Positions 3,795 to 45,334 of a stretch of 64,000 nt of DNA are shown here, one piece after another; position 1 is the first letter of the stretch; each line of letters opens with the position of its first letter. The stretch covers positions 1 through 64,000 of the forward strand of contig NZ_VIQO01000034.1 of the NCBI RefSeq assembly GCF_007483665.1, in the 5' to 3' direction. The translations under genes were made by a program, and so were the position numbers. The notes beneath the pieces are model-generated. The model saw only the letters and a program-made list of their open reading frames with translations, was not told where the DNA came from and ran no database searches. The stretch is from Catellatospora sichuanensis (GTDB lineage: Bacteria > Actinomycetota > Actinomycetes > Mycobacteriales > Micromonosporaceae).

Positions 3795-6700
3795 GTGGTC
3801 GGGTCTGTGCGCCGTCGTTCGCTTGGTCGTCGACTGCCGTCGTTGTTGTCGGTGGTGCTGCTGGCCGGTCTGCTGCCTTTCATGCCGGAGCCGGCGGTGG
3901 CTGCCGGCACGGGTGGTGAGCCGCAGGCGGACCGGTCGGTGGAGGTGTCGGCGGTGAAGGGCGAGCGCGTGCAGCGTACGCAGCCGAAGCCGTGGCGGGC
4001 TGCGCCGGTGTCTTTCCCGCAGGCGGCGTCGGCGGTGGTGGATCTGCCGGTGCAGGCGTCGGGTGGGCGTCGCGGTACTGCCTTGGTGGGTGGACTGCCG
4101 GTGACGGTGTCGTCGGTGGACACGTCGTCGGAGGTGCAGTCGGGTCGGGCGTTGGCGGATGCGGCGGCGGGGCGTGGTGCGCCGGAGAAGGTGCGGGTCG
4201 AGGTTGTTGACCGTGCCGCGGCGGGTAGGGCCGGGGCTGCGGTGGCGTTGAAGCTGTCGCGCGCAGATGGGCTGTCGGGCCAGGCGCGGGTGCGGGTGGA
4301 GATCGGCTACGGCGATTTCCACGATGCGTACGGTGGCGATTGGGCCAAGCGGGTTGGTGTGGTGTTGCTGGCCGATTGCGCGGTGAGCACACCGGACAAG
4401 GACGCGTGCAAGAGCCGGACCCGGTTGGAGTCGGTCAACAACGCCTCCGCGTTGACCGTGTCGGCGGATGTCGACCTGATGGCCGCACCCGCGGCGACGG
4501 ACGCTGATCCGCTGGTGGACCCGTCCCCGGTCGAGGAGGCCCCGGCGACGGTGGGCCTGCCATCGGTGCAGGTGACCGGTGAGGACACGCAGATCGCGCA
4601 CCCGCCCGCCGACCCGGCCGTGCCGGAACCGGCTGCAGACGCGCCGAGTGGCAGCCCTGCGCCGGTGGCTGAGGGCGCCGGTGATGGCAGTGTGATGGTG
4701 GCGCTGGCGGCGGGTGCATCGTCTGAGACGGGCACGTTCGCGGCGACGCAGCTGTCGCAGACCGCGTCGTGGCAGGGCGGTGGCTCGGCCGGCGGCTTCT
4801 CCTGGTCGTATATGGCTCTATGACACCGTCGCCAATGGCCAGCTCACCCATTCGGTTCGTTACATCGGCGGCTACAACCAGCCCGGCACCGCTGCCTACG
4901 TTAACCGCATCGACGCCTACGACGACGCCTACCGGCCACTGACTGCCCGGACGACCATCGCAGCTACGGCCGAGAACGGTGCACTTGCCGGTGACTACAC
5001 CACCACCATGACCTACAAGGACAACGGCGCGCCCGCCACGGTCGCCCTGCCCACGGTCGGGGGTTTGCCCGCAGAGACCATTACCACCACCTACACCACG
5101 CAGGGGCTGCCCACCGCAGTTAAGGGGGTAGACGACTACCTCGCCGACATCACCTACCGATGGGACGGCACCACCGCACAAACTCTGCACGGCCACGCTG
5201 GAAAGCAGTTGCGCCAGACATTTACCCACGACGAAGCCACGGGGCGACTGCTAACCACTCAGATCGACGCCGAGAACCAGACCACGACAGGAGCCTTCGA
5301 CGACAAGTTCACCACGGATTACGGCTATGACGCAGTCGGCAACATTACGGCAATCGCCGGTAAGCTGAGCGGCACCCGAGACCAGGTTGAATGCTTCAAG
5401 TACGACCACCTGCGTCGCTTAACCGAAGCCTGGACCAATTCGACCTGGGACTGCTCGGCCGCCCCGATTGCTGGCGGAGCGGGAGCCGATCCATACTGGC
5501 GCCAGTGGACCTTTGACAGGGTCGGCAACCGCCTGACCCAGACGGACAGGGGAGCTTCCGGCGATACCGCCTGGACGTACACGGTCCCTGGTGCTGATAC
5601 GGCCCGACCGCACTCGCTGACAAGCGTCACTGCAAACGGCCCGCTGGCCACATCGACGCGCAACTTCACCTACGACAGCGCTGGCAACACGCTGACCAGG
5701 CAGACGGTGACTGGTGTGAATCAGACCCTCGCCTGGGATCCCGAAGGACATCTCGCCACCCTCACCGAAGGAACAAACAACAGCAGCTATCTATATGACG
5801 CTGAGGGCAACCGCCTTTTCAGCCGGGCACCTGGCAAGACCACCCTTTACCTCGGCGGCACCGACCTGGAGCTACGGACCGACGGCGGGCCGGTGCTCGG
5901 CACCCGCTACTACACGGTGGGTGGAAAGGCCGTCGCTGTGCGTCGCGCGAGCGGTCTCGCGTGGACCTGCGCCGACCATAACGGTACCCAGCAGGTCCAG
6001 ATCGACTCCGTCACCCTCGAGGCGGCCCACAATCGAACCTTGCCTTACGGTGAGTTCCGAGGGGCGCAGACTGCGTTCGTCGGCGGGAAGGGCTACGTAG
6101 GAGGCCAACGCGACGACACTGGCCTGACCCACCTCGGTGCCCGCGAGTATGATCCGACGCTTGGCCGCTTCATCACCGTGGACCCAGTAATGGACCTGAA
6201 GAATCCCCAGCAATGGAATGCGTATGCCTACAGTAATAGCAACCCTGTGACATACAGCGACCCGAGCGGACTCATAGCGTGTGGCGATGACGCCTGCAAG
6301 TACACGGTGAAGCCATCCCGTGACGGGCAGAGTCTAATCATTGACGACAAGCGGTCGAGTGATTTGAAGAGCCACACGCGCCAGGTCATTAAGCTTCCGA
6401 AGCTTCCGCAGAAGTCGACCCAAGGCGGCACTGACCCGTGCGCCGTGGCACCGGAATCGGAACTCTGCAAGGCGTTGGCCTTGACCGTTACTGAGATCCA
6501 GAAGAATTCAGCTGGACCAGATGTGGGTAATATCGAGTGGCAAATGGGCAACGGATGCGGGTTCATGGCATATTTCTTCGGTATGTGTGGAACGACGGCA
6601 AGTCAGATAAACGCGCTCGATGACTTTATGCATCTAGTGTGCAAAGATTGCAAATGGGATCACAAACCTACAATCCAAGCAATGTGGGGTGGATCGAAAT

Positions 6701-6999
6701 ACGCAGTAGATCCGGTCACTGGCGCCGAAATTTTCTATGACATTTTCTCGAATGTGCACTACGGCTATGTGGGTCGAGAAGCGGCCATTGACTCCGAAAT
6801 GTTGCAGTCGGTAAACCTGCCGATCCCTAAAAATCCGGTTACAGGGCAGTCTGAAAGATCGGACGCGATCTCGACTCAAATTGGCATTGATCTGCAGAGC
6901 CGATATCGTCCCGAGCAGATTACTACACAGATTTTGTACATGAGCATCATGGGCCAGCAAGGCGCGTACCTCCAAGCAAACGAGGGAAAGATCAGGTGA
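3795..6999 (+). pseudogene. Secreted Rhs polymorphic toxin with internal deletion
   Basis: The 5' part (3795 to about 4811) encodes a signal peptide (LLSVVLLAGLLPFMPEPAVA) and the N-terminal region of an actinobacterial Rhs wall protein, ending SAGGFSWSY where the first YD-repeat barrel should begin. It then hits a stop at 4821-4823. From about 4809 a different frame carries the late Rhs core: RIWLYDTVANG, many YD repeats, and the closing GAREYDPTLGRFITVDPV and YSDPSGL motifs near 6130-6270. The barrel between is missing and the join is out of frame, so no full toxin can be made. The tip after about 6290 is much lower in GC and ends in a domain with YDIFSNVHYGYVGREA, which resembles polymorphic toxin type 44. 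CGTAT at 4807-4811 may be the deletion microhomology. Confidence 0.8.
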
Positions 7000-7003
7000 T
7001 GTC

Positions 7004-7600
7004 ATGCCTCCGCGTCGTCTGAGTGCTCCGAAGAAAATGCGTAAACTGTATCTCGGTATGGTGCTAGTCCTCGCCATTATGATTGTGGTCGGCGGGGTTT
7101 TGATATTTCCTCAGAATCCGGGCGTGGACACAAAGGCACTCGTGATGTCGCCCGCTCGCAACACCGTGCTTGCCGCCCAGTCGTGGAAGTTGGAGACCTC
7201 GAACGGTTCAGACTCTGGGGTCACCGAGGTCTGGACGGCCTTGGCCCCTGGAAAGCGCAGGATTACCTATTTTCAAGAGATATATCGTGGCCGGAACGAA
7301 TTAGTTGCCCGTTGGGACTATTTGTCGTCAGTCCGCCGCAACTTTGAACGGAATTATCCTTCAAAGGTTATTGGGGTAAATGGTGAGATCAAGTTCGGGG
7401 CAGATGAAAAAGATACCTTTTGCGTAGATATCGACGACACATTGAGTAAAGGAATAGATTCCTGTGCGATGTGGATCTTCTGGGCTAGGTACGGCCAATT
7501 TCGGATCTACATTTCTGTTAATGGGACACATCTGGGCCGCGAAGATTTTTTGCGTACCGTAGGCGAGGTCGATGCATGGGTTCTCGACGCATTGGAGTAG
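7004..7600 (+). CDS. Membrane-anchored candidate immunity protein
   Basis: A 198-residue protein starting 4 bp after the Rhs stop, with AGGTGA just upstream of its ATG. Residues ~15-36 form one transmembrane helix (LYLGMVLVLAIMIVVGGVLIF). The rest is a soluble domain expected outside the membrane, with two cysteines (DTFCVDID and DSCAMW). Its base composition is as low in GC as the toxin tip. Position, size and composition match an immunity partner of the Rhs toxin, but I recognise no family, so that role is inference. The gene looks intact although the toxin gene is broken, as expected if immunity outlasts the toxin. Confidence 0.6.
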   Translation: MPPRRLSAPKKMRKLYLGMVLVLAIMIVVGGVLIFPQNPGVDTKALVMSPARNTVLAAQSWKLETSNGSDSGVTEVWTALAPGKRRITYFQEIYRGRNELVARWDYLSSVRRNFERNYPSKVIGVNGEIKFGADEKDTFCVDIDDTLSKGIDSCAMWIFWARYGQFRIYISVNGTHLGREDFLRTVGEVDAWVLDALE

Positions 7601-7697
7601 CGATTAGCCTCGGCCCTTCGGTAAGGGCTGTCCGCATCGTGGATCAAGAAAGAGGAAGTGCCCTCTGATCTGGGAAGATCTGACTTGTCTAAGGCGG

Positions 7698-7905
7698 GTC
7701 AACGAACTTAGCGGGGGTTGAGGTGGCCACGGTAGGCGCGCCGTGGCGCAGCGGGTGCGTTGACGGGTTGCGCCAGGATCTCCGGTTACGAGGTCTGGCC
7801 GGTGGTCGCCAGGCGCTCCACCTCGGGCAGACCGGACTCGGCGCAGCGGCGGTAGAAGCGATAGAGCAGAGCGGCGACGTCTTCGCGGTTGTGGCTGGTG
7901 CGCGC
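7698..7905 (-). mobile_element. ISL3-type transposase relic
   Basis: This is a decayed copy of the 3' end of the ISL3 element found at 8804-10268, in the same orientation. Its minus-strand translation NREDVAALLYRFYRRCAESG matches NREDVADLLYWFYRRCAESG of the other copy. Its left edge (from about 7698) resembles the element's terminal repeat. About 85 bp are deleted inside it relative to the other copy. The DUF4240 gene begins just after it. Confidence 0.75.
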
Positions 7906-7910
7906 CCGAG

Positions 7911-8801
7911 TTGAGTGATCGGCATACTGTCGTGGTGGAGATCGACGAGTTCTGGTGGATCGTGGATCGGGCGCGTGACGATGCGGGCGTTGCGACGGGT
8001 CCGTTTGACGAGGCCGCGGTTGCCGAAGCGCTGGTCGCGCGACTGATGACGTTGTCACGCAACGAGATCCTCGACTTCGACGACCTCCTGGGCGAGGTGA
8101 TCGCGCGGCTGGACACGTGGGAGGTGGCCGTCGCGTGTCAGCTCATCACCGGTTACATCTCCGACGACGCCTTCTCGTCATTCAGGGCTGGGCTCGCCGG
8201 CTTGGGGCGCCGGACCGTAGAGCAGATCTTCGCCGACCCCGACTCCCTCGCCGGTCACCCCGTCGTCATCGACATCGCCGAGGGTCGCTGTGAGCGGATG
8301 GCGCTCTTCAGCGAAGACCTGCTCTTCGCAGCATCGTCCGCGTTCGCCGGGATCAGCGGCGGCGACGAGGACGCCTTCTGGGAAGCGCTGGATGCCCGCC
8401 CTCAGTCGGCAGGGTCTGGCGAGGTTCTGCCGCCGGACTGGGAACCCGGTGCCGACGACGCCGAGCGCGCCCCCGAGCGGCTGCCGCGCCTTTGGGCGCT
8501 CCTGCCTCCCGGACGGTGGGCGTCCGAACCACGTCCCGCCAAGGCGGTGCCGCAGGCTGATCCTCACGAAGGATGCCCGCTGTGCGGTGGTGCGTTGCTG
8601 GCGCAGTCGGTCGGCTCGAGTAGCCGTCGCGAGGACGGGACGATCCTCACGCGCGAGTTTCGGGGTTGCCTGGATTGTTCGCAGGTGGTTGAGCGCACCA
8701 AACGTGGCGACGGCTGGGATGCGTGGCGTGAGACAGACCCGGTCGAACTTGATCATCTAGTGAGCGTGCGGATCCTGCTTTCAGCTGGCCTGGGGTCATG
8801 A
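7911..8801 (+). CDS. DUF4240 domain protein
   Basis: A protein of up to 296 residues. The first ~130 residues fit DUF4240: EFWWIVDRARDDAG, then LSRNEILDFDDLLGEVIARLDTW, and a GYISDDAFSSFRAGL segment where the family has a SDDGF-type motif. The C-terminal ~75 residues contain CPLCGG and CLDCSQ, a likely zinc ribbon. The function of DUF4240 is unknown. The TTG at 7911 gives the longest form; GTGs at 7932 and 7935 (MVEIDEFWW) fit the family better. The gene lies between two ISL3 sequences and its stop ends 2 bp before the right-hand IS, so it may have moved with them. It could belong to the toxin-immunity island, but that is inference. Confidence 0.7.
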   Translation: MSDRHTVVVEIDEFWWIVDRARDDAGVATGPFDEAAVAEALVARLMTLSRNEILDFDDLLGEVIARLDTWEVAVACQLITGYISDDAFSSFRAGLAGLGRRTVEQIFADPDSLAGHPVVIDIAEGRCERMALFSEDLLFAASSAFAGISGGDEDAFWEALDARPQSAGSGEVLPPDWEPGADDAERAPERLPRLWALLPPGRWASEPRPAKAVPQADPHEGCPLCGGALLAQSVGSSSRREDGTILTREFRGCLDCSQVVERTKRGDGWDAWRETDPVELDHLVSVRILLSAGLGS

Positions 8802-34895: not shown

Positions 34896-36662
34896 TCACG
34901 GGGCCGGCTCTCCCGAGGGCGCCGTCAGGGTGACACCGGTCGCGACCGGCACGCCGAGGTTAGGGGTGCCGTCGGCGTTCCAGGTGATCTTCTGTACCCG
35001 GGTGGACCGGTTCATGTCGCAGCCGCCGCTGGTCGAGCTGTTCGCGTGGTACACGATCCAGTCCTCGGTCCCGTCGGGCGACTTGAAGAAGCCGTTGTGG
35101 CCCGGCCCGTACACGCTGTTGGCGTTGGAGCGCTGGAAGACCGGGTTGGGCGACTTCGTCCACGACGACGACAGCAGCGGGTCGCCGCTGCCGTTGTAGG
35201 TGAGCATGCCCAGCTTGTAGTCCGGGGTGGAGCAGTGGCTGGCCGAGTAGATGATGAAGGTCCTGCCGTTGCGCTGCAGGACCTCACCGCCCTCGGCGAC
35301 CGCCCCGCCGACCGTCTCCCAGCTCAGCGTCGGCGTGGTCAGGATGCGACGGGTGCCGCTGGCGGTCCACGGGTTGCTCAGCGGCCGGATGAAGAGCGGC
35401 TGGGAGCCGTTGTAGAACGTGCCCAGCAGGTACAGCTGGCCGTTGAGCTGCAGGATGCCCGGGTCCAGCTCCCAGGTGTTGTTGGCCGTCGGGTCGAGCA
35501 GGCTCGCCTTGAAGCTGTACGGGCCCATCGGGTCGGTCCCCGCGCTCTCCAGCACGTGGATGCGCTGGGTGCCCAGGTTGTAGGGCTCCTGCCCGGCGGT
35601 GTAGTAGAAGTACCACCGCAGCCCGTTGGGGCCGTTGAGCAGGTGGAACTCGGGCGCCCACATGGTGCCCGCGCCGTTGGGGTTGGTCAGGTTGAACAGC
35701 ACCTGGTCGGTGGCGGTGGCCAGGCCGCGCATGGTGGTCGCCCGGCGCATGGTGATGGTGCGGTTCCAGGTCGTCGTGGCCAGGTAGTAGTAGCCGTTGT
35801 AGTACTGCAGCCACGGGTCCGGGCCCTGCGCCTTGATCGGGTTGGTGAACGTGTTCGTGCTGCCGCCCGAGGTGACCGTCCAGCTGAACGTCGTGCTGCC
35901 GCTGACGCCGCCGCTGGTCGCGGTGGCGGTGACGGTGTACGACGCCACGGTGGTCGGGGTGCCGCTGATGACGCCGGTCGAGCCGTTGATGCTCAGCCCG
36001 GCGGGCAGGCCGCTCGCCGTCCAGGTGTAGCCGCCGGAGCCGCCCGACGCCTGCAGCGCCAGCGAGGTGGCGGTGTTGACGGCGGTGGAGCGGCTGCCGG
36101 GGTTGGTGACCGTGACGCCGGTGCTGTCGGTGACGTACGACGGCAGGCGCCACACCCGGCTCGTCGCGGTGCTGCACGGCAGCTGCACGAGTCCGGTGTT
36201 GGCCGCGTTCGACCCGCCACTGGGGACGATGCACTTGCCGGAGCCGACCGACACGACGTTGAAGGTCTTGTCGGTGCCGCCGACCGTCACCGGGGTCAGC
36301 CGCCACCGCTGGTTGGGGTTGGTGTGGCAGGGCCACTGGATGATGGTGGCGTTGTCGGCGGTGGAGGCGCCGTTGACGTCGACGCACTTGCCTGACGTCG
36401 ACGTCGCGATGGTGTAGGTGTCCGTGGTGCCCGACACCGGCGTGAAGGTGAACCGCTGGTACGTGGCGGAGTTGCAGGCCTGCTGGGTGAGCTGCACCAG
36501 GTTGGCGGTGTTGCCGCCGGGCAGGGCCGCGCAGTTGCCGCCGTTCTGATTGACGGCCGTGGTGCTGAACGTGACGATCGCGGCGGCGGGCTGCGGGACG
36601 AACAGCGTCGCGGCCACGATGGCGGGCACGGTGAGCAGGGACAGTAGTCGGGAGCGTGTCAT
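34896..36662 (-). CDS. Secreted GH43-family glycosidase with ricin-type and Ig-like domains
   Basis: A 588-residue secreted enzyme. The signal peptide ends near PQPAAA. Residues ~28-155 form a ricin-type beta-trefoil (repeated QxW: NPNQRWRLTPV and ATSRVWRLP), ~165-245 form a putative Ig domain (GLPAGLSINGSTGVISGTP), and ~250-588 a five-bladed GH43 domain. The base is Asp in KAQGPDPWLQ and the WAPEFHLLNG motif carries a conserved Glu. GH43 enzymes act on arabinan and xylan side chains; the precise substrate is not decidable. The ATG at 36660-36662 (MTRSRLLSLL) is used because it begins the signal peptide; an upstream start would add 15 charged residues. Confidence 0.85.
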   Translation of the reverse strand: MTRSRLLSLLTVPAIVAATLFVPQPAAAIVTFSTTAVNQNGGNCAALPGGNTANLVQLTQQACNSATYQRFTFTPVSGTTDTYTIATSTSGKCVDVNGASTADNATIIQWPCHTNPNQRWRLTPVTVGGTDKTFNVVSVGSGKCIVPSGGSNAANTGLVQLPCSTATSRVWRLPSYVTDSTGVTVTNPGSRSTAVNTATSLALQASGGSGGYTWTASGLPAGLSINGSTGVISGTPTTVASYTVTATATSGGVSGSTTFSWTVTSGGSTNTFTNPIKAQGPDPWLQYYNGYYYLATTTWNRTITMRRATTMRGLATATDQVLFNLTNPNGAGTMWAPEFHLLNGPNGLRWYFYYTAGQEPYNLGTQRIHVLESAGTDPMGPYSFKASLLDPTANNTWELDPGILQLNGQLYLLGTFYNGSQPLFIRPLSNPWTASGTRRILTTPTLSWETVGGAVAEGGEVLQRNGRTFIIYSASHCSTPDYKLGMLTYNGSGDPLLSSSWTKSPNPVFQRSNANSVYGPGHNGFFKSPDGTEDWIVYHANSSTSGGCDMNRSTRVQKITWNADGTPNLGVPVATGVTLTAPSGEPAP

Positions 36663-37052: not shown

Positions 37053-38246
37053 TCAGGCCGCCGCGGTCCGGATGCGCAGTGACTCGTACGTCGGCACCAG
37101 GACCCGCCGGGCGGGCGTCCGGGACACCACCTGCCACGGCCGCCCGTCGGCGATGAGCGTCTCCAGCAGGCGGGTCAGCTGCACCCTGGCCACCGCCGCG
37201 CCCAGGCAGAGATGCCGTCCCGCGCCGAACCACAACTGGCGGGTCTCGGGCACGTACTCACGGGTGACATCGAACGGCCCGGCCTTGTTGTCGGCCACGT
37301 AGGTCAGCATCATCACCCGGCCGTCCCGGTGCAGACGCCGCCCGGCGATCTCGGTGTCCCGGGCGATGTGCCGTCCGATCACCGGCGCGGGCGTGGTGAC
37401 CCGCAGCCCCTCCCGCACCGCGTTGGCGGTCAGCGCCGGGTCGGCCAGCAGCCGGTGCTGCTGCCCCGTGTCGTGCAGCAGCGCCACGGTGCGGGTCAGC
37501 GAGGACGCACCGGTCTCGGTGCCCGCGATCACCAGCAGCGTGGTCAGCCCCTTCGCCAGGTCGAGCCCGAGATCCAGGCCGCGGCAGCGGCCAAGGATGG
37601 TGTCCGGGCCGCCGGTGCGGTACGCCCGCTCGACGCCGCCGGTGATCGCGTCGACCAGCCCGCGCGCCTTGGCGAGCACCTCGGACGCGAGCGCCGTGGA
37701 CACCTGCGTGCCCAGCGCCAGCGCGGCCAGCCGCTCCGCGGACGCGAACAGCGCCAGCGCCGCGTCGTCATCGGAAACGGCCACCCCGAGCAGATCGGCG
37801 ACGGTGTATGCCGACGTCGTGCGGACCACCGCGGCCAGGTCCACCTCCTCACCGGCCGCCAGGCGGGCGCGCAGCAAGGCGTGATGCGGGCCCTGCACCC
37901 GGTCGACCAGCGACCGGGCGCTGTCCTCGGTGAACATGTCCCGGGCCAGCGAGCGCAGCTCGGTATGGCGCGCCCCGGCGAAGAACGACGCGAACTCGGC
38001 CCCGAACAGCTGACCCCACAGGTCACCCACCCCGCCTTCGCCGACCATGCTGAACGCCGGGTCGTTGAGGATGCGCCGGGCCAGCACCGAATCGGTGACG
38101 ACCCAGCCGAGCCGGGGGAGCCGCGCGATCGGTCCGAGCAACCGGCCGACCGTCAGCAATGTCCACAGTGCCGGGTTGCCCGCCCGGAGCAGCCGTGCCT
38201 CGTGCCTGCGGGCCTGTGCGTGTTCGGACACCAGACCGTGATGCAT
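37053..38246 (-). CDS. Cytochrome P450 (divergent member of the Ole-like cluster)
   Basis: A 397-residue soluble P450. The heme loop is LWFGAGRHLCLGAAVAR (FGxGxHxCxG), the I-helix oxygen-activation motif is LLVIAGTETGASS, and the K-helix ExxR is VREGLRVTTP. N-terminal residues GWVVTDSVLARRILNDPAF fit a bacterial class I P450 that needs a separate ferredoxin, not encoded nearby. It is about as similar in layout to the second P450 at 41713 as two clustered paralogues would be. ATG 38244-38246 has GGAGG five bases upstream. It is divergent from the KAS III operon and probably belongs to the same pathway, now separated from it by a TnpB element. Confidence 0.85.
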   Translation of the reverse strand: MHHGLVSEHAQARRHEARLLRAGNPALWTLLTVGRLLGPIARLPRLGWVVTDSVLARRILNDPAFSMVGEGGVGDLWGQLFGAEFASFFAGARHTELRSLARDMFTEDSARSLVDRVQGPHHALLRARLAAGEEVDLAAVVRTTSAYTVADLLGVAVSDDDAALALFASAERLAALALGTQVSTALASEVLAKARGLVDAITGGVERAYRTGGPDTILGRCRGLDLGLDLAKGLTTLLVIAGTETGASSLTRTVALLHDTGQQHRLLADPALTANAVREGLRVTTPAPVIGRHIARDTEIAGRRLHRDGRVMMLTYVADNKAGPFDVTREYVPETRQLWFGAGRHLCLGAAVARVQLTRLLETLIADGRPWQVVSRTPARRVLVPTYESLRIRTAAA

Positions 38247-38363
38247 TTCGCCCTCCGACTGCCGTGCACAGATGGTATGCCATGCCGGACCGCCGCCGGG
38301 CGGCCCAGCCGTGCAGCAACTTTCGACTAGTGGGGATATTCCTATCTGGACGCGTGTGTAGGG

Positions 38364-38546
38364 TTGGCCATTGTGCGCAGTGTTGGTCGGATCGGGGAGT
38401 TCGTGGACCGCATCGGCTGGTTGGCGAATACTGTCCGCGGTTGGGGGGCCGGTAGCCAGATCGCTTCTGACTGCGCTGCGTCGGGGCGGCAGTGTCTGGT
38501 CTACTGCGACGCATACGCGACGTGGCGGCAGGCGGCCGCGGCGTGA
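38364..38546 (+). CDS. Small ORF translationally coupled to tnpB
   Basis: A 60-residue frame (TTG 38364, or GTG 38373) whose stop overlaps the GTG start of tnpB by 4 bp. It contains VGRIGEFVDRIGWLANTVRG and GRQCLVYCDAYATWRQAAA. I do not recognise it; it is not a TnpA serine or tyrosine recombinase. It may be an accessory peptide of this IS lineage or only a coupling leader. Confidence 0.45.
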   Translation: MAIVRSVGRIGEFVDRIGWLANTVRGWGAGSQIASDCAASGRQCLVYCDAYATWRQAAAA

Positions 38547-39949
38547 AGGCTACGCGGATCGCGCACTCGCACCGACTTAACCCGGGCAAGTACCGTGCCC
38601 TGGCGGAGCAGGCCCGCCGGTTGGGTCGGGTGCGTTGTCTGGTGTGGCAGCGCCACGGGTCGGTGGGCGGTGCGGGCCTTTCCGGCCGGCTGGTCCGTGA
38701 CCGGTGGCTGGCCGAGGGCACCCACCGCGGGTTCGGGGTGCTGGCCAATGCGTGGAAGGAGACGGTCCGCGACGCGATGGCCGACATCGCCGCGAACCGG
38801 GCCGCCGCGAAGGTGAAGGTTCGCCGCGCGATCGGCCGGCACACCAGTGATCCGGCCGAACGGCGCCGGCTGTTCACGGCGCTGAAGGCCGAATTGTGGG
38901 CCGCTGATGCGTACCTGGCCCGGCAGATGCGCCGCCACTGGCGACGCGGCCGCAACCGCACCCACGACCAGATCGTGGTGCGCGCCGACCAGCACAACAC
39001 CCGGGCCGACGCCCGCGGTCGACTGTGGCTGGCCGTCCCCGGCCTGCAGCAGCGGGCGATGGTGAAGATCCCGCTGCGCACCACTTTCGCGCCGACCGGC
39101 ACGCTGCGGCTGATCCTGCGCGAGGACCGGGTCGAGATTCATTACCAGATCGACGCGGCCACGATGAACACCAGCCGGCGCCCGTGCGGATCGGCCACCA
39201 TCGGCGTGGACAAGGGCTACACCGAGGTGCTCACCGACGCCGACGGTGAACATCACGGCACGGGCCTAGGCACACTGCTCACTACCGAGTCCGACAGGCG
39301 TAAGGACAAAGGCCGCCGCCGGGCCAGGTTGCGTTCGATCGCCAACCACGCCGCAGCGCGCGGCGAGAAGGCCAAGGCCGACCGCATTCTCAGGAACAAC
39401 CTGGGCACGGTCAAGAAGAACCGCCGCGACAAGGCCTGGCGGGCTAGGGTGCGCACCGAGACGTTCGCCGCCGTGCACCGGGTGGTCGACAAGGCCGCCA
39501 CCGTCGTGGCCGAGGACCTCACTAAGACCTTCGCCGTGCGCAAACCGCTCGGCAGGAACGTGAACAGACGCTTGGCGGCGTGGACCAAAGGGGTCACCGC
39601 CGAGGCACTGAAAAGCGTGTCGGAGCGCAGAGGTTCTGCGCTCGTTTCCGTCAACGCCGCCTACACCTCACAAGCATGTCACCGTTGCAGCGGCCTGGGC
39701 CGCCGCAACGGGGACCGGCTTCACTGCACCTGGTGCAGGGTCGTGTGGCAGGCAGACGTGAACGCCGCGATCAACATCCAGGCAAGAGCCGGCGACTCCG
39801 ACATCGCCCTGCACACCCCTCACCACCGGGTAAAGCAGATCTTGCTGGAACGGGCCGATCGCCACCGGACCAGACTGCCGGTCCAGGACTCCAGCTACCA
39901 TCCGGCGGCGGAGAGCGAAACATCCGACCTGCTCAGCTATGAGCAATAA
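38543..39949 (+). CDS. tnpB: TnpB-type RNA-guided nuclease (IS200/IS605-IS607 group)
   Basis: A 468-residue TnpB. The split RuvC triad looks intact: Asp in ATIGVDKGYTEVL, Glu in VVAEDLTKTFAV, and Asp in VVWQADVNAAINI. The zinc ribbon is CHRCSGLGRRNGDRLHCTWC. TnpB proteins are RNA-guided DNA endonucleases that use an omega RNA from the element's right end. No tnpA is present, so the element is non-autonomous. The stop is only 16 bp before the KAS III start, so the right end and any omega RNA must overlap the tnpB 3' end or the KAS III gene. It starts at GTG 38543, coupled to the small ORF upstream. Confidence 0.85.
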   Translation: MKATRIAHSHRLNPGKYRALAEQARRLGRVRCLVWQRHGSVGGAGLSGRLVRDRWLAEGTHRGFGVLANAWKETVRDAMADIAANRAAAKVKVRRAIGRHTSDPAERRRLFTALKAELWAADAYLARQMRRHWRRGRNRTHDQIVVRADQHNTRADARGRLWLAVPGLQQRAMVKIPLRTTFAPTGTLRLILREDRVEIHYQIDAATMNTSRRPCGSATIGVDKGYTEVLTDADGEHHGTGLGTLLTTESDRRKDKGRRRARLRSIANHAAARGEKAKADRILRNNLGTVKKNRRDKAWRARVRTETFAAVHRVVDKAATVVAEDLTKTFAVRKPLGRNVNRRLAAWTKGVTAEALKSVSERRGSALVSVNAAYTSQACHRCSGLGRRNGDRLHCTWCRVVWQADVNAAINIQARAGDSDIALHTPHHRVKQILLERADRHRTRLPVQDSSYHPAAESETSDLLSYEQ

Positions 39950-39965
39950 ATCGGAAGCAGGTGGG

Positions 39966-40967
39966 ATGAGAGCCAGGATCGTCGGGGTGGAGGCGCACCT
40001 GCCCCCCGTGCGCGTCAGCAGCGCACAGGTGGAACGCCGGATCGCCGAGCACAGCCAGGGGTTCGTCCCGCATCCCACGATCGTGGCGCGCCTGACCGGC
40101 ATCCGGCACCGGCACTACGCCGCCGACGACGTGCAGGCCTCCGACCTGGCGGTGACCGCTGCGGAGAAGCTGCTGGCCGGGCACGGCCTGGCCGCGACCG
40201 ACGTCGACCTGATCATCTTCGGGTCGGCCTCGCAGGACCTGATCGAGCCCGCCACCGCGCACATCGTGGCCGCCAAACTCGGCGCGAACTGCGCGGTGTT
40301 CGACGTGAAGAACGCCTGCAACAGCTTCCTCAACGCGGTACAGCTGGCCGAGGCGCTGATCGTCACCGGCCAGCACCGGCGCGTGCTGGTCTGCTCCGGC
40401 GAGGTGCCGTCCCGGGCGATCCGCTGGCAGGTGCGCGACCGCGCCCAGTTCATCGACGCGTTCGCCGGCTACACCCTGTCCGACGGCGGCGCCGCGATGC
40501 TGCTGGAGCCCGCCTCGTCCGGCGGCGTGTTCCACCGGCGTTTCGCCGCCGACTCCACCGCCTGGGACGTGGGCACACTGCCCGCGGGCGGGACCATGCA
40601 CCCGCGCGATCCGGACGCGACGTTCTTCAGCGGCGACGGGCGGCGGCTGCGCGACGTGTTCGTGCGCAACGGCGCCCGGCTGTTCCTGGAGGCGCTCGGC
40701 GACACCGGGCTGAGCTGGGACGACTTCGCCGTCGTGTGCGTGCACCAGGTCGCGCTGCCCTACCTGGAGCAGCTGCGGGCCGGGCTGGACATCCCGGCGG
40801 ACCGGCTCGTGGTCACCCTGCCCGAGCACGGCAACCTGGCCAGCGTCACGTTGCCGCTGCAGCTGGCCACCGCCATCCAGGACGGCCGCTGCGGGCCCGG
40901 CGACCGGGTCGCCCTGATCGGCCTGGCCGGCGGGGTCAGCCTCGGCGTGATGTTCGTGGAGCTGTGA
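39966..40967 (+). CDS. KAS III-like condensing enzyme (OleA-type)
   Basis: A 333-residue thiolase-fold enzyme. The nucleophile is Cys118 in DVKNACNSFLNAV, His260 lies in VCVHQVALPYLEQL, and Asn290 in LPEHGNLASVTLPL, completing the Cys-His-Asn triad. The N-terminal MRARIVGVEAHLPPVRV is typical. The gene set downstream suggests non-decarboxylative joining of two acyl-CoA/ACP chains, as in OleA, but classical KAS III priming cannot be excluded. ATG 39966 is preferred over ATG 39939, which overlaps tnpB and adds nine non-conserved residues. It leads a five-gene operon with 1-4-bp overlaps. Confidence 0.85.
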   Translation: MRARIVGVEAHLPPVRVSSAQVERRIAEHSQGFVPHPTIVARLTGIRHRHYAADDVQASDLAVTAAEKLLAGHGLAATDVDLIIFGSASQDLIEPATAHIVAAKLGANCAVFDVKNACNSFLNAVQLAEALIVTGQHRRVLVCSGEVPSRAIRWQVRDRAQFIDAFAGYTLSDGGAAMLLEPASSGGVFHRRFAADSTAWDVGTLPAGGTMHPRDPDATFFSGDGRRLRDVFVRNGARLFLEALGDTGLSWDDFAVVCVHQVALPYLEQLRAGLDIPADRLVVTLPEHGNLASVTLPLQLATAIQDGRCGPGDRVALIGLAGGVSLGVMFVEL

Positions 40968-41716
40968 TGGGTCACCGGCTCTGGGTCGTCATCCCGGCAT
41001 ACGACGAGCAGCGGTCCATCGGCGCGACGCTGCATCGGCTGACCGAGCAGAGCGACGGAGCGTTCACGGTGGTCGTGGTCGACAACGGCAGCACCGACGC
41101 GACCGCCTCGATCGCCGCCGGGTTCGCGGACCGGCTGGACCTGTACGTGATCAGTGAGCCGGTGAAGGGCACCGGAGCGGCGGCGGACACCGGCATGCGA
41201 TACGCCATCGCGAACGGCGCGACGCTGCTGGCCCGCACCGACGCCGACTGCCTGCCCGCGCCCGGCTGGATCGCCGCGGTGCGCCGCGGCTTCGACGACG
41301 GGCTGCGTTTGCTCAGCGGCCCGCTGCGCCCTCGCGCCGACGAGTTTCCGCTGCGCTGGTGGGAACGACGGTTGCTGCCCGCGGTGGTGTCGCTGGCGGC
41401 GACGTTCGGCCGGTTCCGGCCCGGCAACCGCGACGCGGCGTATGTCGGCCCGTACGTGATGATGCCCGGCTGCAACCTGGCCATCACCGCCGAGCTCTAC
41501 GAGGCGGCGGGCGGCTTCCCGCGCACCCGCATCGAGGACGTCCACGAGGACCGGGCGCTGGTCAACCGGGTGCGCAGGCTCACCAGCGACTACGGCCTGC
41601 GCCGCGACGTGCTGGTGCACGGCTCGGTCCGGCGGCTGCGCGCGTACGGCCTCGTCGGCACCCTGGCCTGGTATGCCGACCACCGCTACACCCCGGACCG
41701 GGTGGACATCCGGTGA
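40967..41716 (+). CDS. Family 2 glycosyltransferase
   Basis: A 249-residue GT-A glycosyltransferase. The start is LWVVIPAYDEQRSIGATL, the UDP-binding strand is VVVVDNGSTDATASI, and the metal-binding DxD is LLARTDADCLPAPGW. The acceptor-side motif is ARTRIEDVHEDRALVNRVRR-like (RTRIEDVHEDRALVNR). There is no membrane segment. It would add a sugar to a lipid or hydroxylated product. TGATG overlap with the KAS III gene and GTGA overlap with the P450 show one operon. Confidence 0.85.
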   Translation: MGHRLWVVIPAYDEQRSIGATLHRLTEQSDGAFTVVVVDNGSTDATASIAAGFADRLDLYVISEPVKGTGAAADTGMRYAIANGATLLARTDADCLPAPGWIAAVRRGFDDGLRLLSGPLRPRADEFPLRWWERRLLPAVVSLAATFGRFRPGNRDAAYVGPYVMMPGCNLAITAELYEAAGGFPRTRIEDVHEDRALVNRVRRLTSDYGLRRDVLVHGSVRRLRAYGLVGTLAWYADHRYTPDRVDIR

Positions 41717-42864
41717 AGCCGGGCACCTGGGAGCGCCGGCTCTACCGGCGTGCGCACCCGTTCGCGTACCCGCTGCTGCGGCTGCTGGCCCGGCGCGGAC
41801 CGGTGGTGCGGGTGCCGGGCCTGGGCGTCGTCGTCAACGACGCGGGACTGGCCCGCGGGGTGCTGCTGGACGGCGAGACGTTCCGCAAGGACGGACCGGG
41901 CTCGTCCGGTGACCTGTGGACCCCGATCCTCGGCCCGTCGGTGCTGCTCAACATGGAGGGTCCCGCGCACCGGGCGCTGCGCGGCAGGCTCGCGGAGCTG
42001 TTCACCCCGGGCTACGCCGACCGGCTGTGCGCCGAGGTGCTGGCCGGGCCGCTGGCGGCGCTGGCCGACCGGCTCGGCCGCGGCGAGCCGGTGGACCTGG
42101 TCGACACCATGCGGGTGATGGCGGGCGCGGTGATCTGCGCGGTGGTCGGGCTGGAGTCGCGTTCGGAGGACGACCACCGGTCGATGTTCCATCGGGGCGA
42201 GCAGATCGTGTCGATGGTGACGCTGCGCACCCGCACGCTGGCCCCGGCGCAGGCCCGGCGCGCCCGCGAAGTCCTCGCCCCGGTCGGCGAGGTCGCCGCG
42301 CGCGCCTACCGGGCCGGGGACGAGACCACCGTGATGGGCCGGATGCGGGCGCTGGGCATCTCCGAGGCCGAGGCGCGCGGCGCGGCGGGCGCGTTCTTCC
42401 TCACCGGCACCGAGACCGTGGCGACCCTGGTGCCGCGCCTGATCGCGCTGCTGCACGACGCCGGGCAGCTGGACCGGGTCGCGGCCGATCCGGCGCTGCT
42501 GGACCCCGCCGTCGACGAGGCGATGCGGGTGAGCACGCCGACCCCGGTGATGCTGCGCAGCGTGCACGCCGAGACGGCGATCGGTGCGGTGGCGGTCCGG
42601 CCGGGGGACCGGGTGCTGCTGGCGACGCACAACTGCTGCCAGGCGTACGGGCCGTTCGACCTGGACCGGCCGCACCCGCCGGAACTGCGGCGGCTGTGGT
42701 TCGGCGCCGGTCCGCACTTCTGCATCGGGTATCCCCTCGCGATGGCCGAGATCCGCGTGGTGGCCCGTACCGTGCTGGCCGCCGCACCGCTGCGGATCCT
42801 GCGCCGGAGCGCGGCCCGTGGCGTGCTGATCCCGACCTACCGGGAACTGGTGATCAGCCGATGA
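41713..42864 (+). CDS. Cytochrome P450 (operon member)
   Basis: A 383-residue soluble P450. The heme-binding loop is RLWFGAGPHFCIGYPLA, the I-helix motif is AFFLTGTETVATLV (Thr kept), and the ExxR is VDEAMRVSTPTP. It begins MKPGTWERRLYRRAHP, so it has no membrane anchor. It probably hydroxylates or desaturates the acyl product of the operon. It is coupled on both sides by GTGA/ATGA overlaps. The divergent P450 at 37053 is its likely partner in the pathway. Confidence 0.88.
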   Translation: MKPGTWERRLYRRAHPFAYPLLRLLARRGPVVRVPGLGVVVNDAGLARGVLLDGETFRKDGPGSSGDLWTPILGPSVLLNMEGPAHRALRGRLAELFTPGYADRLCAEVLAGPLAALADRLGRGEPVDLVDTMRVMAGAVICAVVGLESRSEDDHRSMFHRGEQIVSMVTLRTRTLAPAQARRAREVLAPVGEVAARAYRAGDETTVMGRMRALGISEAEARGAAGAFFLTGTETVATLVPRLIALLHDAGQLDRVAADPALLDPAVDEAMRVSTPTPVMLRSVHAETAIGAVAVRPGDRVLLATHNCCQAYGPFDLDRPHPPELRRLWFGAGPHFCIGYPLAMAEIRVVARTVLAAAPLRILRRSAARGVLIPTYRELVISR

Positions 42865-44399
42865 GCCTGGTGGAGAAGGTGCTCGCGCAGGCGTCCCGGA
42901 CCCCGTCGGCGGTGGCGCTGGTCGCGGGCGACGGCGCGGAGCTGAGCTACGGCGAGCTGCGCCGGCGGGTGCTGTCGGTGCGCCACGGGCTGCGTGAGAA
43001 CGGGCTGCGGCCCGGGGACGGGGTGCTCTTCTCGGTGCGCCCGTCGCCCGAGTCGCTGGTGCTGGCCATCGCCGTGGTCGCGGCCGGTGGCTGCGTGATC
43101 TTCGCCGACCCGGGCGCAGGGCCGGAGATGTTCACCGCCCGCATGCGGCTGGCCCGGCCGCGCTGGTCGGCCGCCGAGTCGCTGCTGTACGCGGCGAGCC
43201 GGCTGCGCCCAGTGCGCGCGTACGCCCGCCGCCGGGGCCTGCTGCTGCCGAACCTGTCCACGCTGGACGTGGCCCACCACGTCTACACCGGACGCTGGCT
43301 GCCCGGCGTGCCGTCCGGCGCACTGGCGCTGAACCGGCTGCTCACGACACTGCCGGCCGAGCCGGACTCGTTCACTGACCCGGACGCCGCCGCCGCGGTC
43401 ATCTTCACCTCCGGCACCACCGCGCGGCCCCGCGCCGTGGTGCACACCGGGGAGTCGCTGTCCGCCGCGCTCGGGCTGCTGCGCGAGCGGGTGCCGCTCG
43501 GCCCCGGCGACGTCGTGCACACCGACCAGCTCATGCTCGGCCTGCCCACGCTCGCCTCCGGAGCGCGCTGGTCCCTGCCGCCGCTGACCGGCTCCGCGGC
43601 CCTGTTCCTGGCCCAGCTGCGACAGCGGCAGGCCACCCACACGTACTGCGTGCCGGTCCGGCTGGCCGAGATCCTCGACGCCGCCGACGGCCCGCTGCCG
43701 CCCAGCCTGCGGCACATCCTGCTCGGTTCCGCGCCCGCACCCGCCGGGGTGCTGCGCCGGGCCGTCGCGGCGGCACCGCAGGCGGAGGTGCTGTCCGTGT
43801 ACGCGATGACCGAGATGCTGCCCGTCGCGCTCGCCACCGCGGCCGACAAGATCGCCCATGCCGAGAGCGGCGATACCGGCGACCTGCTCGGCGCGCCGCT
43901 GACCGGGGTCCGGGTCAGCCTCGCCGACGACGGCGAGCTGCTGCTGGCCGGGCCGAACCGCAGCCCCGGCTACCTCGGCGAGCCGCCGGCACCCTGGCTG
44001 CCGACCGGGGACCTGGCCCGGCTCGACGCGTCGGGCCGCCTGGTGCTGCTCGGCCGGAAGAAGGACATGCTCATCCGCGGCTCGTTCAACCTCTATCCCG
44101 GACTCTACGAACCCGCGATCACCGCGCTGCCGGGCGTCGCCGAGGCCGCGTACGTCGGGGTGCCCGATCCGGACCACGGCGACGAGCGGGTGGTGCTGGC
44201 CGTCGTCGCCGCCGATGCGGCCGAGTCCGCCGCGCTGCCCGCCCGGCTGCGGCGTGAGCTGCCTGGGATCGTCGACCACGACGCGCTGCCCGACGACGTC
44301 CTCGTGCTGCCGCGCCTGCCCCGTTCCGGCCGCGGACAGAAGGTCGACCGGGAGGCGCTGCGCGATCTGGTGACCCCGCCCGGCCCGGTGCCCCGGTGA
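42861..44399 (+). CDS. AMP-dependent ligase (OleC-like)
   Basis: A 512-residue adenylate-forming enzyme. The P-loop is VIFTSGTTARPRAVVHTG, the A5-like motif is YAMTEMLPVALAT, the hinge region is TGDLARLDASGRLVLLGRKK, and the catalytic Lys of the C-terminal lobe is in SGRGQKVDREAL. The GGCVIFADPGAGPEMFTARM segment resembles the matching part of OleC beta-lactone synthetases. OleC closes 2-alkyl-3-hydroxy acids to beta-lactones. A plain fatty acyl-CoA/AMP ligase is the alternative, given the GRKKDMLIRGSFNLYP loop. Its position between P450 and epimerase favours a role on the KAS III product. Confidence 0.8.
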   Translation: MSLVEKVLAQASRTPSAVALVAGDGAELSYGELRRRVLSVRHGLRENGLRPGDGVLFSVRPSPESLVLAIAVVAAGGCVIFADPGAGPEMFTARMRLARPRWSAAESLLYAASRLRPVRAYARRRGLLLPNLSTLDVAHHVYTGRWLPGVPSGALALNRLLTTLPAEPDSFTDPDAAAAVIFTSGTTARPRAVVHTGESLSAALGLLRERVPLGPGDVVHTDQLMLGLPTLASGARWSLPPLTGSAALFLAQLRQRQATHTYCVPVRLAEILDAADGPLPPSLRHILLGSAPAPAGVLRRAVAAAPQAEVLSVYAMTEMLPVALATAADKIAHAESGDTGDLLGAPLTGVRVSLADDGELLLAGPNRSPGYLGEPPAPWLPTGDLARLDASGRLVLLGRKKDMLIRGSFNLYPGLYEPAITALPGVAEAAYVGVPDPDHGDERVVLAVVAADAAESAALPARLRRELPGIVDHDALPDDVLVLPRLPRSGRGQKVDREALRDLVTPPGPVPR

Positions 44400-45334
44400 G
44401 GATCGCGGTGACCGGCGCGTCCGGCTTCGTCGGCGGCGCCGTGTGCCGTGCGCTGACCCGCGCGGGGCACGACCTCGTCGGCTTCGGCCGCCGCGCGGAG
44501 CCCCCGCCCGGTCACGTCGGTGCGGCCGCGTACCGGCGGTGGGACCTCGCCGACGGCCCGCTGGCCGACCCGCCCGAGGTGGACGCCGTGGTGCACTGCG
44601 CGGGCACCGTCACCGACTGGGGACCGCGCAGGGAGTTCTTCGCCGTCAACGTCGACGGGACCCGGCACGCGCTGGCCACCTGGCCGTTGGCGCGGTTCGT
44701 GCACGTCAGCACCGCGAGCGTGTACGACCCCCGGCAGCCGACGGTCATGGCGGCCGAGGACCGCGCCCCGGTGGGCCGTTACCTCAACGCCTACGGCGAG
44801 TCCAAGGCGGCGGCTGAGCGCTTCGTGCTCGACGTGGCGGCGGACCGTCCTGCGATCGTGCTGCGCCCGCACGCCGTCTACGGCCCCGGTGACACCACGC
44901 TGCTGCCCCGGGTGCTGGCCGCGGTGCGCGGCCGCCGTCTGCCGGCGGTGGGCGACGGGCGGCAGCTGATCAGCCTCACCTCGGTCGGCAACCTGGTGCA
45001 GGCGTGCACGCTCGCGGCCTGCGGGCCGGTGGAGCGGGGCGTCTTCAACATCACCGACGCGGCACCGGTGGTGCTCGACGACGCGCTGCGCGCCATCCTG
45101 GCGGCCCGTGGCATCACCGCCCGGCCGGTGTACCTGCCCCTGGCGGCGGTGTGGCCGCTCGCGACCGCTGTCGAAGGGCTGTACCGGCTGGCCCGCTCCC
45201 CGCGACCACCCCGGCTGACCCGTTATGCGATCAGCCATCTGGCCGTCGAGCGGACGCTGGACATCACCGCCGCCCGGGAGGCGCTCGGCTACCACCCCGA
45301 CCCGACGTCGTTCGCCGGGGCGGCGGGCTGGTAG
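44396..45334 (+). CDS. NAD-dependent epimerase/3-beta-HSD-type reductase (OleD-like)
   Basis: A 312-residue short-chain dehydrogenase of the extended type. The NAD(P) loop is IAVTGASGFVGGAVCRAL, the catalytic Tyr-Lys pair is NAYGESKAAAERFVL, and VLRPHAVYGPGDTTLLPRVL follows. The C-terminal TRYAISHLAVERTLD and AREALGYHP fit 3-beta-HSD/OleD proteins. OleD reduces the 2-alkyl-3-keto acid made by OleA, so this gene plus the KAS III and ligase gives the core Ole logic. It starts at GTG 44396 overlapping the ligase stop and ends the operon; a convergent gene follows. Confidence 0.82.
   Translation: MRIAVTGASGFVGGAVCRALTRAGHDLVGFGRRAEPPPGHVGAAAYRRWDLADGPLADPPEVDAVVHCAGTVTDWGPRREFFAVNVDGTRHALATWPLARFVHVSTASVYDPRQPTVMAAEDRAPVGRYLNAYGESKAAAERFVLDVAADRPAIVLRPHAVYGPGDTTLLPRVLAAVRGRRLPAVGDGRQLISLTSVGNLVQACTLAACGPVERGVFNITDAAPVVLDDALRAILAARGITARPVYLPLAAVWPLATAVEGLYRLARSPRPPRLTRYAISHLAVERTLDITAAREALGYHPDPTSFAGAAGW

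What the first reader, a model, noticed from the sequence alone, without database searches (positions are those of the whole stretch)
37053..45334. Possible undescribed Ole-type lipid pathway with two P450s and a glycosyltransferase
KAS III, AMP ligase and epimerase match the OleA/OleC/OleD logic of head-to-head acyl condensation and beta-lactone formation, without an OleB decarboxylase. A GT2 and two P450s would add oxidation and glycosylation, predicting an oxidised, glycosylated long-chain beta-lactone or related lipid. Four junctions overlap by 1-4 bp, so the genes act together.
Basis: partly seen in the sequence, partly recalled or inferred. Interest (0 to 1): 0.7.

Follow-up and report, generated by a model that had tools for sequence, protein, structure and literature searches.

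The report
Sugar-bearing lipid pathway, ligase unlike OleC
This is a common soil-actinomycete gene cluster, of a kind already noted once in print, that probably joins two fatty acids head to head and then adds oxygen and a sugar; its carboxyl-activating enzyme is not the expected ring-forming one, so the published product guess needs a bench test.

Summary
In the window (Catellatospora, Micromonosporaceae) KAS III, GT2, P450, AMP ligase and SDR form one operon with junction overlaps of 1, 4, 4 and 4 bp; a second P450 is divergent. A TnpB gene, not mentioned in the finding, is inserted between that P450 and the operon; it is absent from all fetched congener loci.

The KAS is OleA-type by motif (Glu-Pro, Asn-Ala-Cys, His, Asn), unlike FabH controls. 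The SDR is OleD-like. The ligase is not OleC-like: the curated beta-lactone-synthetase model gives it 80 bits, against 519 and 524 for an OleC and a nocardiolactone-type ligase, and it forms its own clade.

The idea is not new. Smith et al. 2020 (PMC7064751) described an Actinoplanes region with OleA, GT, OleC, P450 and OleD and predicted a hydroxylated, glycosylated beta-lactone. The window is a two-P450 subtype.

New here: wide distribution (of 80 fetched loci, 77 keep GT2 and 77 the ligase); the same GT2-ligase pair behind a two-subunit condensing enzyme in another genus; one natural GT2-ligase fusion. Head-to-head condensation and reduction are likely; beta-lactone closure is open (about 0.4). 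A glycosylated ester or dilactone lipid is the boldest alternative.

The parts
37053..38246 (-). P450A, cytochrome P450 (397 aa), divergent accessory gene
   Evidence: Pfam p450; relative at >=44% identity near the KAS in 43 of 80 loci; at the 3' end in L110 and L121; co-directional, 14-21 bp before the KAS, in L242, L243, L245
39966..40967 (+). OleA-type KAS III (333 aa): Glu94-Pro95, Cys118, His260, Asn290
40967..41716 (+). GT2 glycosyltransferase (249 aa), GT-A fold with DxD (Arg-Thr-Asp-Ala-Asp), no close solved relative
   Evidence: Pfam Glycos_transf_2; R.DAD in 97 of 97 called family members; AlphaFold model and Foldseek
41713..42864 (+). P450B, cytochrome P450 (383 aa)
   Evidence: Pfam p450; P450B in 77 of 80 loci; heme motif in 140 of 141 called P450A/B proteins
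42861..44399 (+). AMP-forming ligase (512 aa), a clade of its own, not OleC
   Evidence: Pfam AMP-binding and AMP-binding_C; C-terminal Lys motif (GR..K.D) in 97 of 97 called members; trees and profiles
44396..45334 (+). OleD-like SDR (312 aa), GxxGxxG and YxxxK
   Evidence: best NCBIfam hit OleD NF042422, 151.5 bits, under the 580 cut-off; motifs and tree
38492..39949 (+). TnpB-family gene inserted between P450A and the KAS; not part of the pathway
   Evidence: NF040570 guided_TnpB 100.3 bits, cut-off 100; no TnpB match in 14 fetched congener loci from 8 genomes; the intergenic region is about 80 bp in L054, L055, L056, L058

Best explanation
A lipid-tailoring operon. (1) The KAS, probably a homodimer with Glu94 of one subunit acting in the other's active site as in OleA, condenses two acyl-CoAs head to head without decarboxylation to a 2-alkyl-3-oxo acid. 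(2) The SDR reduces this to a 2-alkyl-3-hydroxy acid. (3) The ligase adenylates the carboxyl group; closure to a beta-lactone is the single likeliest fate. (4) P450A and P450B oxidise the chains. (5) GT2 adds a sugar to a hydroxyl, not necessarily one made by a P450. Shown here: gene identities, catalytic motifs, linkage, phylogeny. Inferred: every reaction, their order, and the product. The confidence given is for this scheme whatever the fate in step 3; the fates share as beta-lactone 0.4, ester or dilactone glycolipid 0.25, CoA supply 0.25, and no head-to-head reaction at all 0.1.
For: KAS: the published OleA pattern EPxx[AS]x(14,18)DxxNACL (PMC7158056) without its last Leu is met by 98 of 99 called cluster KAS (91 of 92 distinct ones), 12 of 12 fetched members of the OleA family model, 12 of 12 proteins of an NltA-type clade (contexts read for 10 of these 12), and by 0 of 6 FabH-like proteins of another genus and 0 of 2 own-genome paralogues. 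Catalytic Cys, His, Asn and Glu-Pro are invariant in a 14-row alignment. SDR: OleD is its best model (151.5 bits, next non-OleD 71.9) and no other own-genome place matches that model at 1e-25. Condensing enzymes exchange: in 3 of 10 loci fetched from another genus the KAS is of NltA type but GT2 (64-65%) and ligase (48%) are of the window's kind. Linkage. P450A belongs: co-directional six-gene run in L242, L243, L245. Precedent: A. atraurantiacus OleA, from a region with the same functions, was active on p-nitrophenyl hexanoate (PMC7064751).
Against: The generic FabH model scores the KAS slightly above the OleA model (179.4 v 171.5 bits; both under their cut-offs); the best solved relatives by sequence are FabH-type (4dfe 2.7e-40, OleA 3row 7.3e-27). 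In the unrooted tree the KAS clade shares a side with FabH rather than with OleA+NltA type (97/91): compatible with one Glu-Pro group if rooted on FabH, but long branches meet, so sisterhood with OleA is not shown. The little A. atraurantiacus OleA that could be purified did not react with the acyl-CoAs tried. The ligase is not OleC. Some relatives lack parts: L051 no SDR, L050 no GT2, L104 no GT2/SDR/P450, L132 no SDR/P450, L133 no GT2/ligase, L060 only KAS and P450A.
Confidence: 0.6

Rival explanations
1. Glycosylated ester lipid. GT2 glycosylates the 3-hydroxyl of the 2-alkyl-3-hydroxy acid, and the ligase activates the carboxyl for ester formation with a sugar hydroxyl, giving a glycolipid ester or a dimeric dilactone of the kind of glucolypsin. 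No beta-lactone forms because its hydroxyl is taken.
For: Ligase outside the OleC/NltC clade and 80 v 519 and 524 bits on the beta-lactone-synthetase model. GT2 and ligase are one 784-aa protein in Thermomonospora echinospora L132 and stay together when the condensing enzyme is of another type. GT2 occurs with no P450 match in the fetched stretch in L132, L198, L199, so its acceptor need not be a P450-made hydroxyl. The nearest folds of the ligase include amide bond synthetases, which, as I recall, pass acyl-AMP on without CoA. Known chemistry: glucolypsin of Nocardia vaccinii has 2-methyl-3-hydroxy acyl chains, two glucoses, and carboxyl-to-C6' esters (PMC4365757).
Against: The ligase is kept without GT2 in L050 and L104, which makes little sense if the sugar is the acyl acceptor. 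No genome of a glucolypsin producer was identified here. CoA ligases (FadD13, MatB) rank as high in Foldseek.
Confidence: 0.25
2. Plain acyl-CoA supply. The ligase is an ordinary fatty acyl-CoA ligase that feeds the KAS, and the product is a glycosylated, oxidised beta-hydroxy acid or ketone.
For: Best NCBIfam model is a generic long-chain acyl-CoA ligase (150 bits, under its cut-off); identity to own-genome generic ligases is 27-32% (67-120 bits), to OleC 25-31% (39-106 bits).
Against: The ligase goes with this cluster: a cluster KAS stands beside it in 20 of 20 loci fetched out of 31 ligase hits in one genus, and it is once fused to GT2, unlike a housekeeping supply enzyme. In most of the top solved-structure matches only the part from about residue 160 on aligns, so its N-terminal part is unusual.
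Confidence: 0.25
3. The KAS is a FabH-like enzyme doing malonyl-ACP extension, and the cluster makes an ordinary glycosylated fatty acid.
For: FabH model 179.4 bits v OleA model 171.5; PDB ranking; tree side shared with FabH.
Against: Glu-Pro and NAC in all 23 sampled cluster KAS proteins, absent from the FabH-like controls; no ACP gene in the cluster; an NltAB-type pair in its place in L198, L199, L202.
Confidence: 0.1

Closest known systems
Actinoplanes atraurantiacus OleA/GT/OleC/P450/OleD region (Smith et al. 2020, PMC7064751; abstract, sections 11 and 12 and passages seen)
   Same: Same five functions, no oleB, same predicted product (hydroxylated, glycosylated beta-lactone); same family, Micromonosporaceae.
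   Different: The paper lists the genes in the order OleA, GT, OleC, P450, OleD; if that is the gene order it fits my type II loci (KAS-GT2-ligase-P450C-SDR). The window is type I: P450 before the ligase, a P450B only 30-38% identical to type II P450s, and a second, divergent P450. The paper takes the ligase as OleC; the profiles here do not for this family. The A. atraurantiacus sequence was not fetched, so no direct alignment was made.
Nocardiolactone/lipstatin-type clusters (two KAS subunits, ligase, SDR)
   Same: OleA-type condensation logic, no OleB.
   Different: They use a KAS pair (LstAB, PMC12141560; my nltABCD-like loci L200, L201, L203-L207) and an OleC-like ligase (524 bits on NF045786 for L205, the one scored). 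The window has one KAS and a non-OleC ligase. That these seven loci are nocardiolactone clusters is judged by gene content.
Olefin oleABCD clusters
   Same: OleA motif (all but its last residue) and OleD-like SDR.
   Different: No OleB or OleBC fusion; KAS 26-32% and ligase 25-31% identical; GT2 and P450s added.
Glucolypsin-type glycolipid dilactones (chemistry only, PMC4365757, passages seen)
   Same: Needs a 2-alkyl-3-hydroxy acid, a glucosyltransferase and carboxyl activation.
   Different: No gene cluster compared; the link is an inference.

Membership tests
OleA thiolase | Glu-Pro at the position of X. campestris Glu117 | tested here: met
   E94-P95, 23 of 23 sampled cluster KAS; the family profile aligns it to EP of 3row, while solved FabH 4ryb and 4dfe have Phe-Pro there
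OleA thiolase | Full published pattern EPxx[AS]x(14,18)DxxNACL | tested here: not met
   0 of 99 for the full pattern; 98 of 99 without the final Leu (Asn in all 98); L091 fails at [AS]; 12 of 12 OleA-family controls meet the full pattern
OleA thiolase | Placement with OleA and apart from FabH | tested here: inconclusive
   Own clade 99/97; FabH, OleA, NltA type and ours are four groups, ours on the FabH side of a 97/91 branch in the unrooted tree; long branches
OleA thiolase | Non-decarboxylative head-to-head condensation | not testable with these tools
   needs an enzyme assay
OleC beta-lactone synthetase | High score on curated models NF045786 and NF006754 (PRK09274) | tested here: not met
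   80.3 and 139.6 bits v 518.7 and 551.3 for L159 OleC and 524.3 and 610.1 for L205 NltC type. Both controls pass the NF006754 cut-off of 478; none of the three passes the NF045786 cut-off of 900
OleC beta-lactone synthetase | Inside the OleC+NltC clade | tested here: not met
   OleC+NltC 100/99, ours+hybrids 100/100, own-genome ligases 100/99: three separate groups; the root is unknown
OleC beta-lactone synthetase | Beta-lactone formation | not testable with these tools
   needs an enzyme assay
OleD reductase | SDR motifs and OleD as best model | tested here: met
   GxxGxxG, YxxxK; NF042422 best, 151.5 bits, under its cut-off 580; L162 OleD 247.9, L159 OleD 410.7 and L205 NltD type 206.6 are under it too
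A. atraurantiacus-type region (OleA, GT, ligase, P450, OleD) | KAS, GT2, ligase, P450, SDR together, no OleB | tested here: met
   OleB query empty in own genome (no positive control)
Nocardiolactone/lipstatin type | Two KAS subunits (LstAB/NltAB) | tested here: not met
   one KAS gene in the window operon
Glucolypsin-type glycolipid dilactone | 2-alkyl-3-glycosyloxy acid esterified to sugar C6 | not testable with these tools
   chemistry only

The most novel reading that the evidence does not exclude
The ligase, a clade of its own that is coupled to (once fused with) GT2, is not a beta-lactone synthetase: the cluster makes 2-alkyl-3-glycosyloxy fatty-acid esters or dilactones of the glucolypsin kind, so a widespread actinomycete cluster family now read as 'glycosylated beta-lactone' is really a glycolipid pathway that uses interchangeable head-to-head condensing enzymes.
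Probability: 0.2. Interest if true: 0.7.

Novelty: new variant of a known kind. Interest (0 to 1): 0.47.

Why it matters
The only printed reading of this gene set that my ten paper searches found (a glycosylated beta-lactone) rests on calling the ligase OleC, and that call fails here for the window's family. The clusters are common: 108 of 300 genomes sampled from the family hold a KAS match at E<=1e-30 (102 with a best match of 42% identity or more, my count from the table), 31 of 295 of a genus that is probably Streptomyces hold the ligase (probably a lower bound because few candidates per genome were scored), and Actinomadura and Streptosporangium relatives carry it. A single enzyme assay would settle the product class of a large, uncharacterised lipid pathway.

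Tried and rejected
FabH reading of the KAS: set low because the FabH-like controls lack Glu-Pro and NAC. Ligase as OleC: rejected on profile and clade. 'A P450 makes the hydroxyl that GT2 uses' as a rule: not general, since no P450 match lies in the fetched stretches of L132, L198 and L199, which have GT2. 'Long open frames mean GT2-ligase fusions': rejected, GT2 and ligase lie in different frames or as separate genes in the 20 fetched loci (L247 and L248 share a frame and were not examined further); the only fusion I checked and found is L132. L047 as an SDR-less cluster: dropped, it holds a run of N. A block conserved in 31-35 loci of Actinomadura and its neighbours (thiolase, metallo-beta-lactamase-fold protein, more P450s): not seen in the Catellatospora loci, so not counted. 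First nocardiolactone search (KAS alignment) gave six loci without ligase or SDR nearby; the second, with the OleA family model, found them. Literature: 10 searches, all seen as listings. PMC7064751: abstract and outline, sections 11 and 12, passages. PMC12141560, PMC4365757, PMC7158056, PMC10262491: passages only. Robinson et al. 2020 on nocardiolactone biosynthesis did not appear in the listings; what I know of it is recalled. Structure models and Foldseek confirm folds but do not decide between lactone, ester and CoA chemistry. Low-GC region at 4.7-8.8 kb checked briefly, unrelated.

Limits of the counts. Gene-called counts (99 KAS, 97 ligases, 97 GT2) come from 101 stretches (window, 20 family loci, 80 scan loci), seven of which are the same places fetched twice; distinct KAS are 92, and two stretches had no KAS called. 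The 20 family loci were chosen by me (the best ten type I and ten others), as were the 20 Streptomyces-like loci (20 of 31), so their type proportions are not frequencies. The 12 OleA controls are members of the PRK09258 model; an OleBC fusion beside them is likely from the ligase ORF length (800 aa or more) in 9 of 12 and was confirmed by Pfam in L162 alone. Rows left out of trees: own_L003 (very long branch) and four near-copies (the tree has them); three repeated own-genome rows and OleA locus L157 (no ligase on its contig). Trees use samples: 23 of the 99 called KAS, 19 of the 97 called ligases.
Full report
What is there. The window is from a Catellatospora genome (Micromonosporaceae): its KAS is 92-97% identical to that of five named Catellatospora records and 83% to a sixth. 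Five + strand genes run KAS III (39966-40967), GT2 (40967-41716), P450B (41713-42864), AMP ligase (42861-44399), SDR (44396-45334) with overlaps of 1, 4, 4 and 4 bp. P450A (37053-38246) is divergent. Pfam confirms each. Between P450A and the KAS lies a TnpB gene (38492-39949; NF040570, 100.3 bits at a cut-off of 100). No TnpB match exists in 14 fetched congener loci, which come from 8 genomes. In four of these read base by base (L054, L055, L056, L058) the intergenic region is about 80 bp; the window sequence matches L054 up to about 38313 and again from about 39959, so about 1.64 kb was inserted just before the KAS start. Expression in this strain may be altered; that was not tested.

How well the set is conserved. 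In 300 genomes sampled from the family, 108 have a KAS match at E<=1e-30; of the 11 listed genomes of the same genus (own included) 9 have it. A scan of named genomes found 450 relatives and kept the best 80: mostly Actinomadura, with Streptosporangium, Planobispora, Planomonospora, Actinocorallia and single records of Pseudonocardia, Actinocrispum, Nonomuraea and others. Of these 80 loci, 77 have GT2, 77 the ligase, 77 P450B, 75 the SDR, 43 P450A (L076 and L112 lose genes at contig ends). Two layouts exist. Type I (the window): KAS-GT2-P450B-ligase-SDR, often with P450A. Type II: KAS-GT2-ligase-P450C-SDR, seen in 10 of 20 chosen family loci and 15 of 20 fetched loci of a genus that is probably Streptomyces, and on plasmid pKVP2 of Streptomyces viridifaciens (CP090842). 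In that genus 31 of 295 genomes hold the ligase; in a phylum-wide sample 3 of 396, own included; both may be lower bounds. In L242, L243 and L245 P450A is co-directional, 14-21 bp before the KAS, so it belongs to the pathway.

KAS. A published OleA pattern is EPxx[AS]x(14,18)DxxNACL (PMC7158056). Without its last Leu it is met by 98 of 99 called cluster KAS (91 of 92 distinct), 12 of 12 OleA-family controls, 12 of 12 of an NltA-type clade, and by none of 6 FabH-like proteins from another genus or 2 own-genome paralogues; the last residue is Asn in all 98, so the full pattern is met by 0 of 99. The Glu-Pro, Cys, His and Asn columns are clean in the 55-row alignment, and the family profile aligns the Glu-Pro to that of X. 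campestris OleA (3row), where two solved FabH proteins have Phe-Pro. Against: the generic FabH model scores a little higher than the OleA model, solved FabH proteins rank above OleA by sequence, and the tree shows an own clade on the FabH side of an unrooted branch (97/91), with long branches, so its sister is not settled.

Ligase. Its adenylation motifs are kept, including the C-terminal Lys motif in 97 of 97 called members. But it is not OleC. The olefin beta-lactone synthetase model NF045786 gives 80.3 bits to the window ligase, 84.8 to the L132 fusion, and does not list the L199 or L044 ligases at 1e-20, against 518.7 for an OleC (L159) and 524.3 for a nocardiolactone-type ligase (L205). 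In the tree OleC (11) and NltC type (7) form one clade (100/99); the cluster ligases (19) and three hybrids another (100/100); seven own-genome ligases a third (100/99); the root is unknown. Identity to OleC is 25-31%, to own-genome generic ligases 27-32%. The fold is an ordinary ANL fold, with amide bond synthetases and FadD13 among the nearest.

SDR, GT2, P450s. OleD is the SDR's best model, 151.5 bits against 71.9 for the next non-OleD model, though under the curated cut-off, as are the L162 and L159 OleD and the L205 protein, which score higher (206.6-410.7); ours, OleD and NltD type are three groups. GT2 has a GT-A fold and a DxD motif but no close solved relative. P450A and P450B keep heme and ExxR motifs (each 140 of 141).

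Module exchange. A genus of the same order, probably Nocardia (unnamed), gave ten fetched loci: seven are nocardiolactone-like by content (KAS, KAS', OleC-like ligase, SDR), and three (L198, L199, L202) carry the NltA-type KAS pair followed by a GT2 64-65% and a ligase 48% identical to the window's. The KAS tree puts those three KAS with the NltA type and the ligase tree puts their ligases with ours. So GT2 and ligase travel together and go with two kinds of condensing enzyme. In Thermomonospora echinospora (L132) GT2 and ligase are one 784-aa protein. These facts argue that a head-to-head product feeds GT2 and ligase, and that the ligase works with the glycosylation step. Against a strict tie, L050 and L104 keep the ligase without GT2.

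What it most likely does. Head-to-head condensation, reduction, carboxyl activation, oxidation, glycosylation. Whether activation ends in a beta-lactone is not decided; I put that at 0.4, ester or dilactone glycolipid 0.25, CoA supply 0.25, and an ordinary FabH reaction 0.1.

Known or new. Smith et al. 2020 (PMC7064751; outline and abstract, sections 11 and 12 and passages seen) describe the A. atraurantiacus region with OleA, GT, OleC, P450 and OleD, note the lack of oleB, and predict hydroxylation, glycosylation and beta-lactone closure. That OleA was active on p-nitrophenyl hexanoate, but the little purified enzyme did not react with acyl-CoAs. In the listings of my ten literature searches I saw no other paper on this cluster; the library holds open-licence papers only. 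The window adds a two-P450 subtype, and the comparison adds the non-OleC ligase, the module exchange, the fusion and the wide spread.

Noticed in passing
window 38314-39958: TnpB-family gene inserted in the short divergent region between P450A and the KAS; no TnpB match in 14 congener loci from 8 genomes. No separate transposase gene was called between P450A and the KAS.
   Followed up: partly
L198, L199, L202: Hybrid clusters in another genus: NltAB-type KAS pair followed by the window-type GT2 and ligase; L202 also has a P450A-like gene (46%) upstream, and L199 a classical short-chain dehydrogenase before the KAS.
   Followed up: yes
L132:9007-11361: Natural GT2-ligase fusion protein in Thermomonospora echinospora.
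   Followed up: yes
P450C genes of L044-L053: Nine of the ten printed type II P450C proteins read Asn-Thr-Thr (L047 Thr-Thr-Thr) where an acid-Thr pair is usual in the I helix (expectation recalled); my motif count found the usual form in 1 of 10. L047 is interrupted by N.
   Followed up: no
L083:3-6602 and similar loci: A conserved upstream block with a thiolase, a metallo-beta-lactamase-fold protein and further P450s in 31-35 loci of Actinomadura and its neighbours, not in the Catellatospora loci.
   Followed up: no
window 4714-8801: Stretch with lower GC (0.55 at 6-8 kb) holding a 761-aa ORF whose C-terminus matches a bacterial toxin domain (Ntox44) and a DUF4240 ORF nearby: looks like a polymorphic-toxin type locus.
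   Followed up: no
window 34896-36662: GH43 glycosidase with ricin-type lectin domains next to P450A, in 8 of 101 gene-called stretches, all from the window's genus and three of them duplicates; probably not part of the pathway.
   Followed up: no
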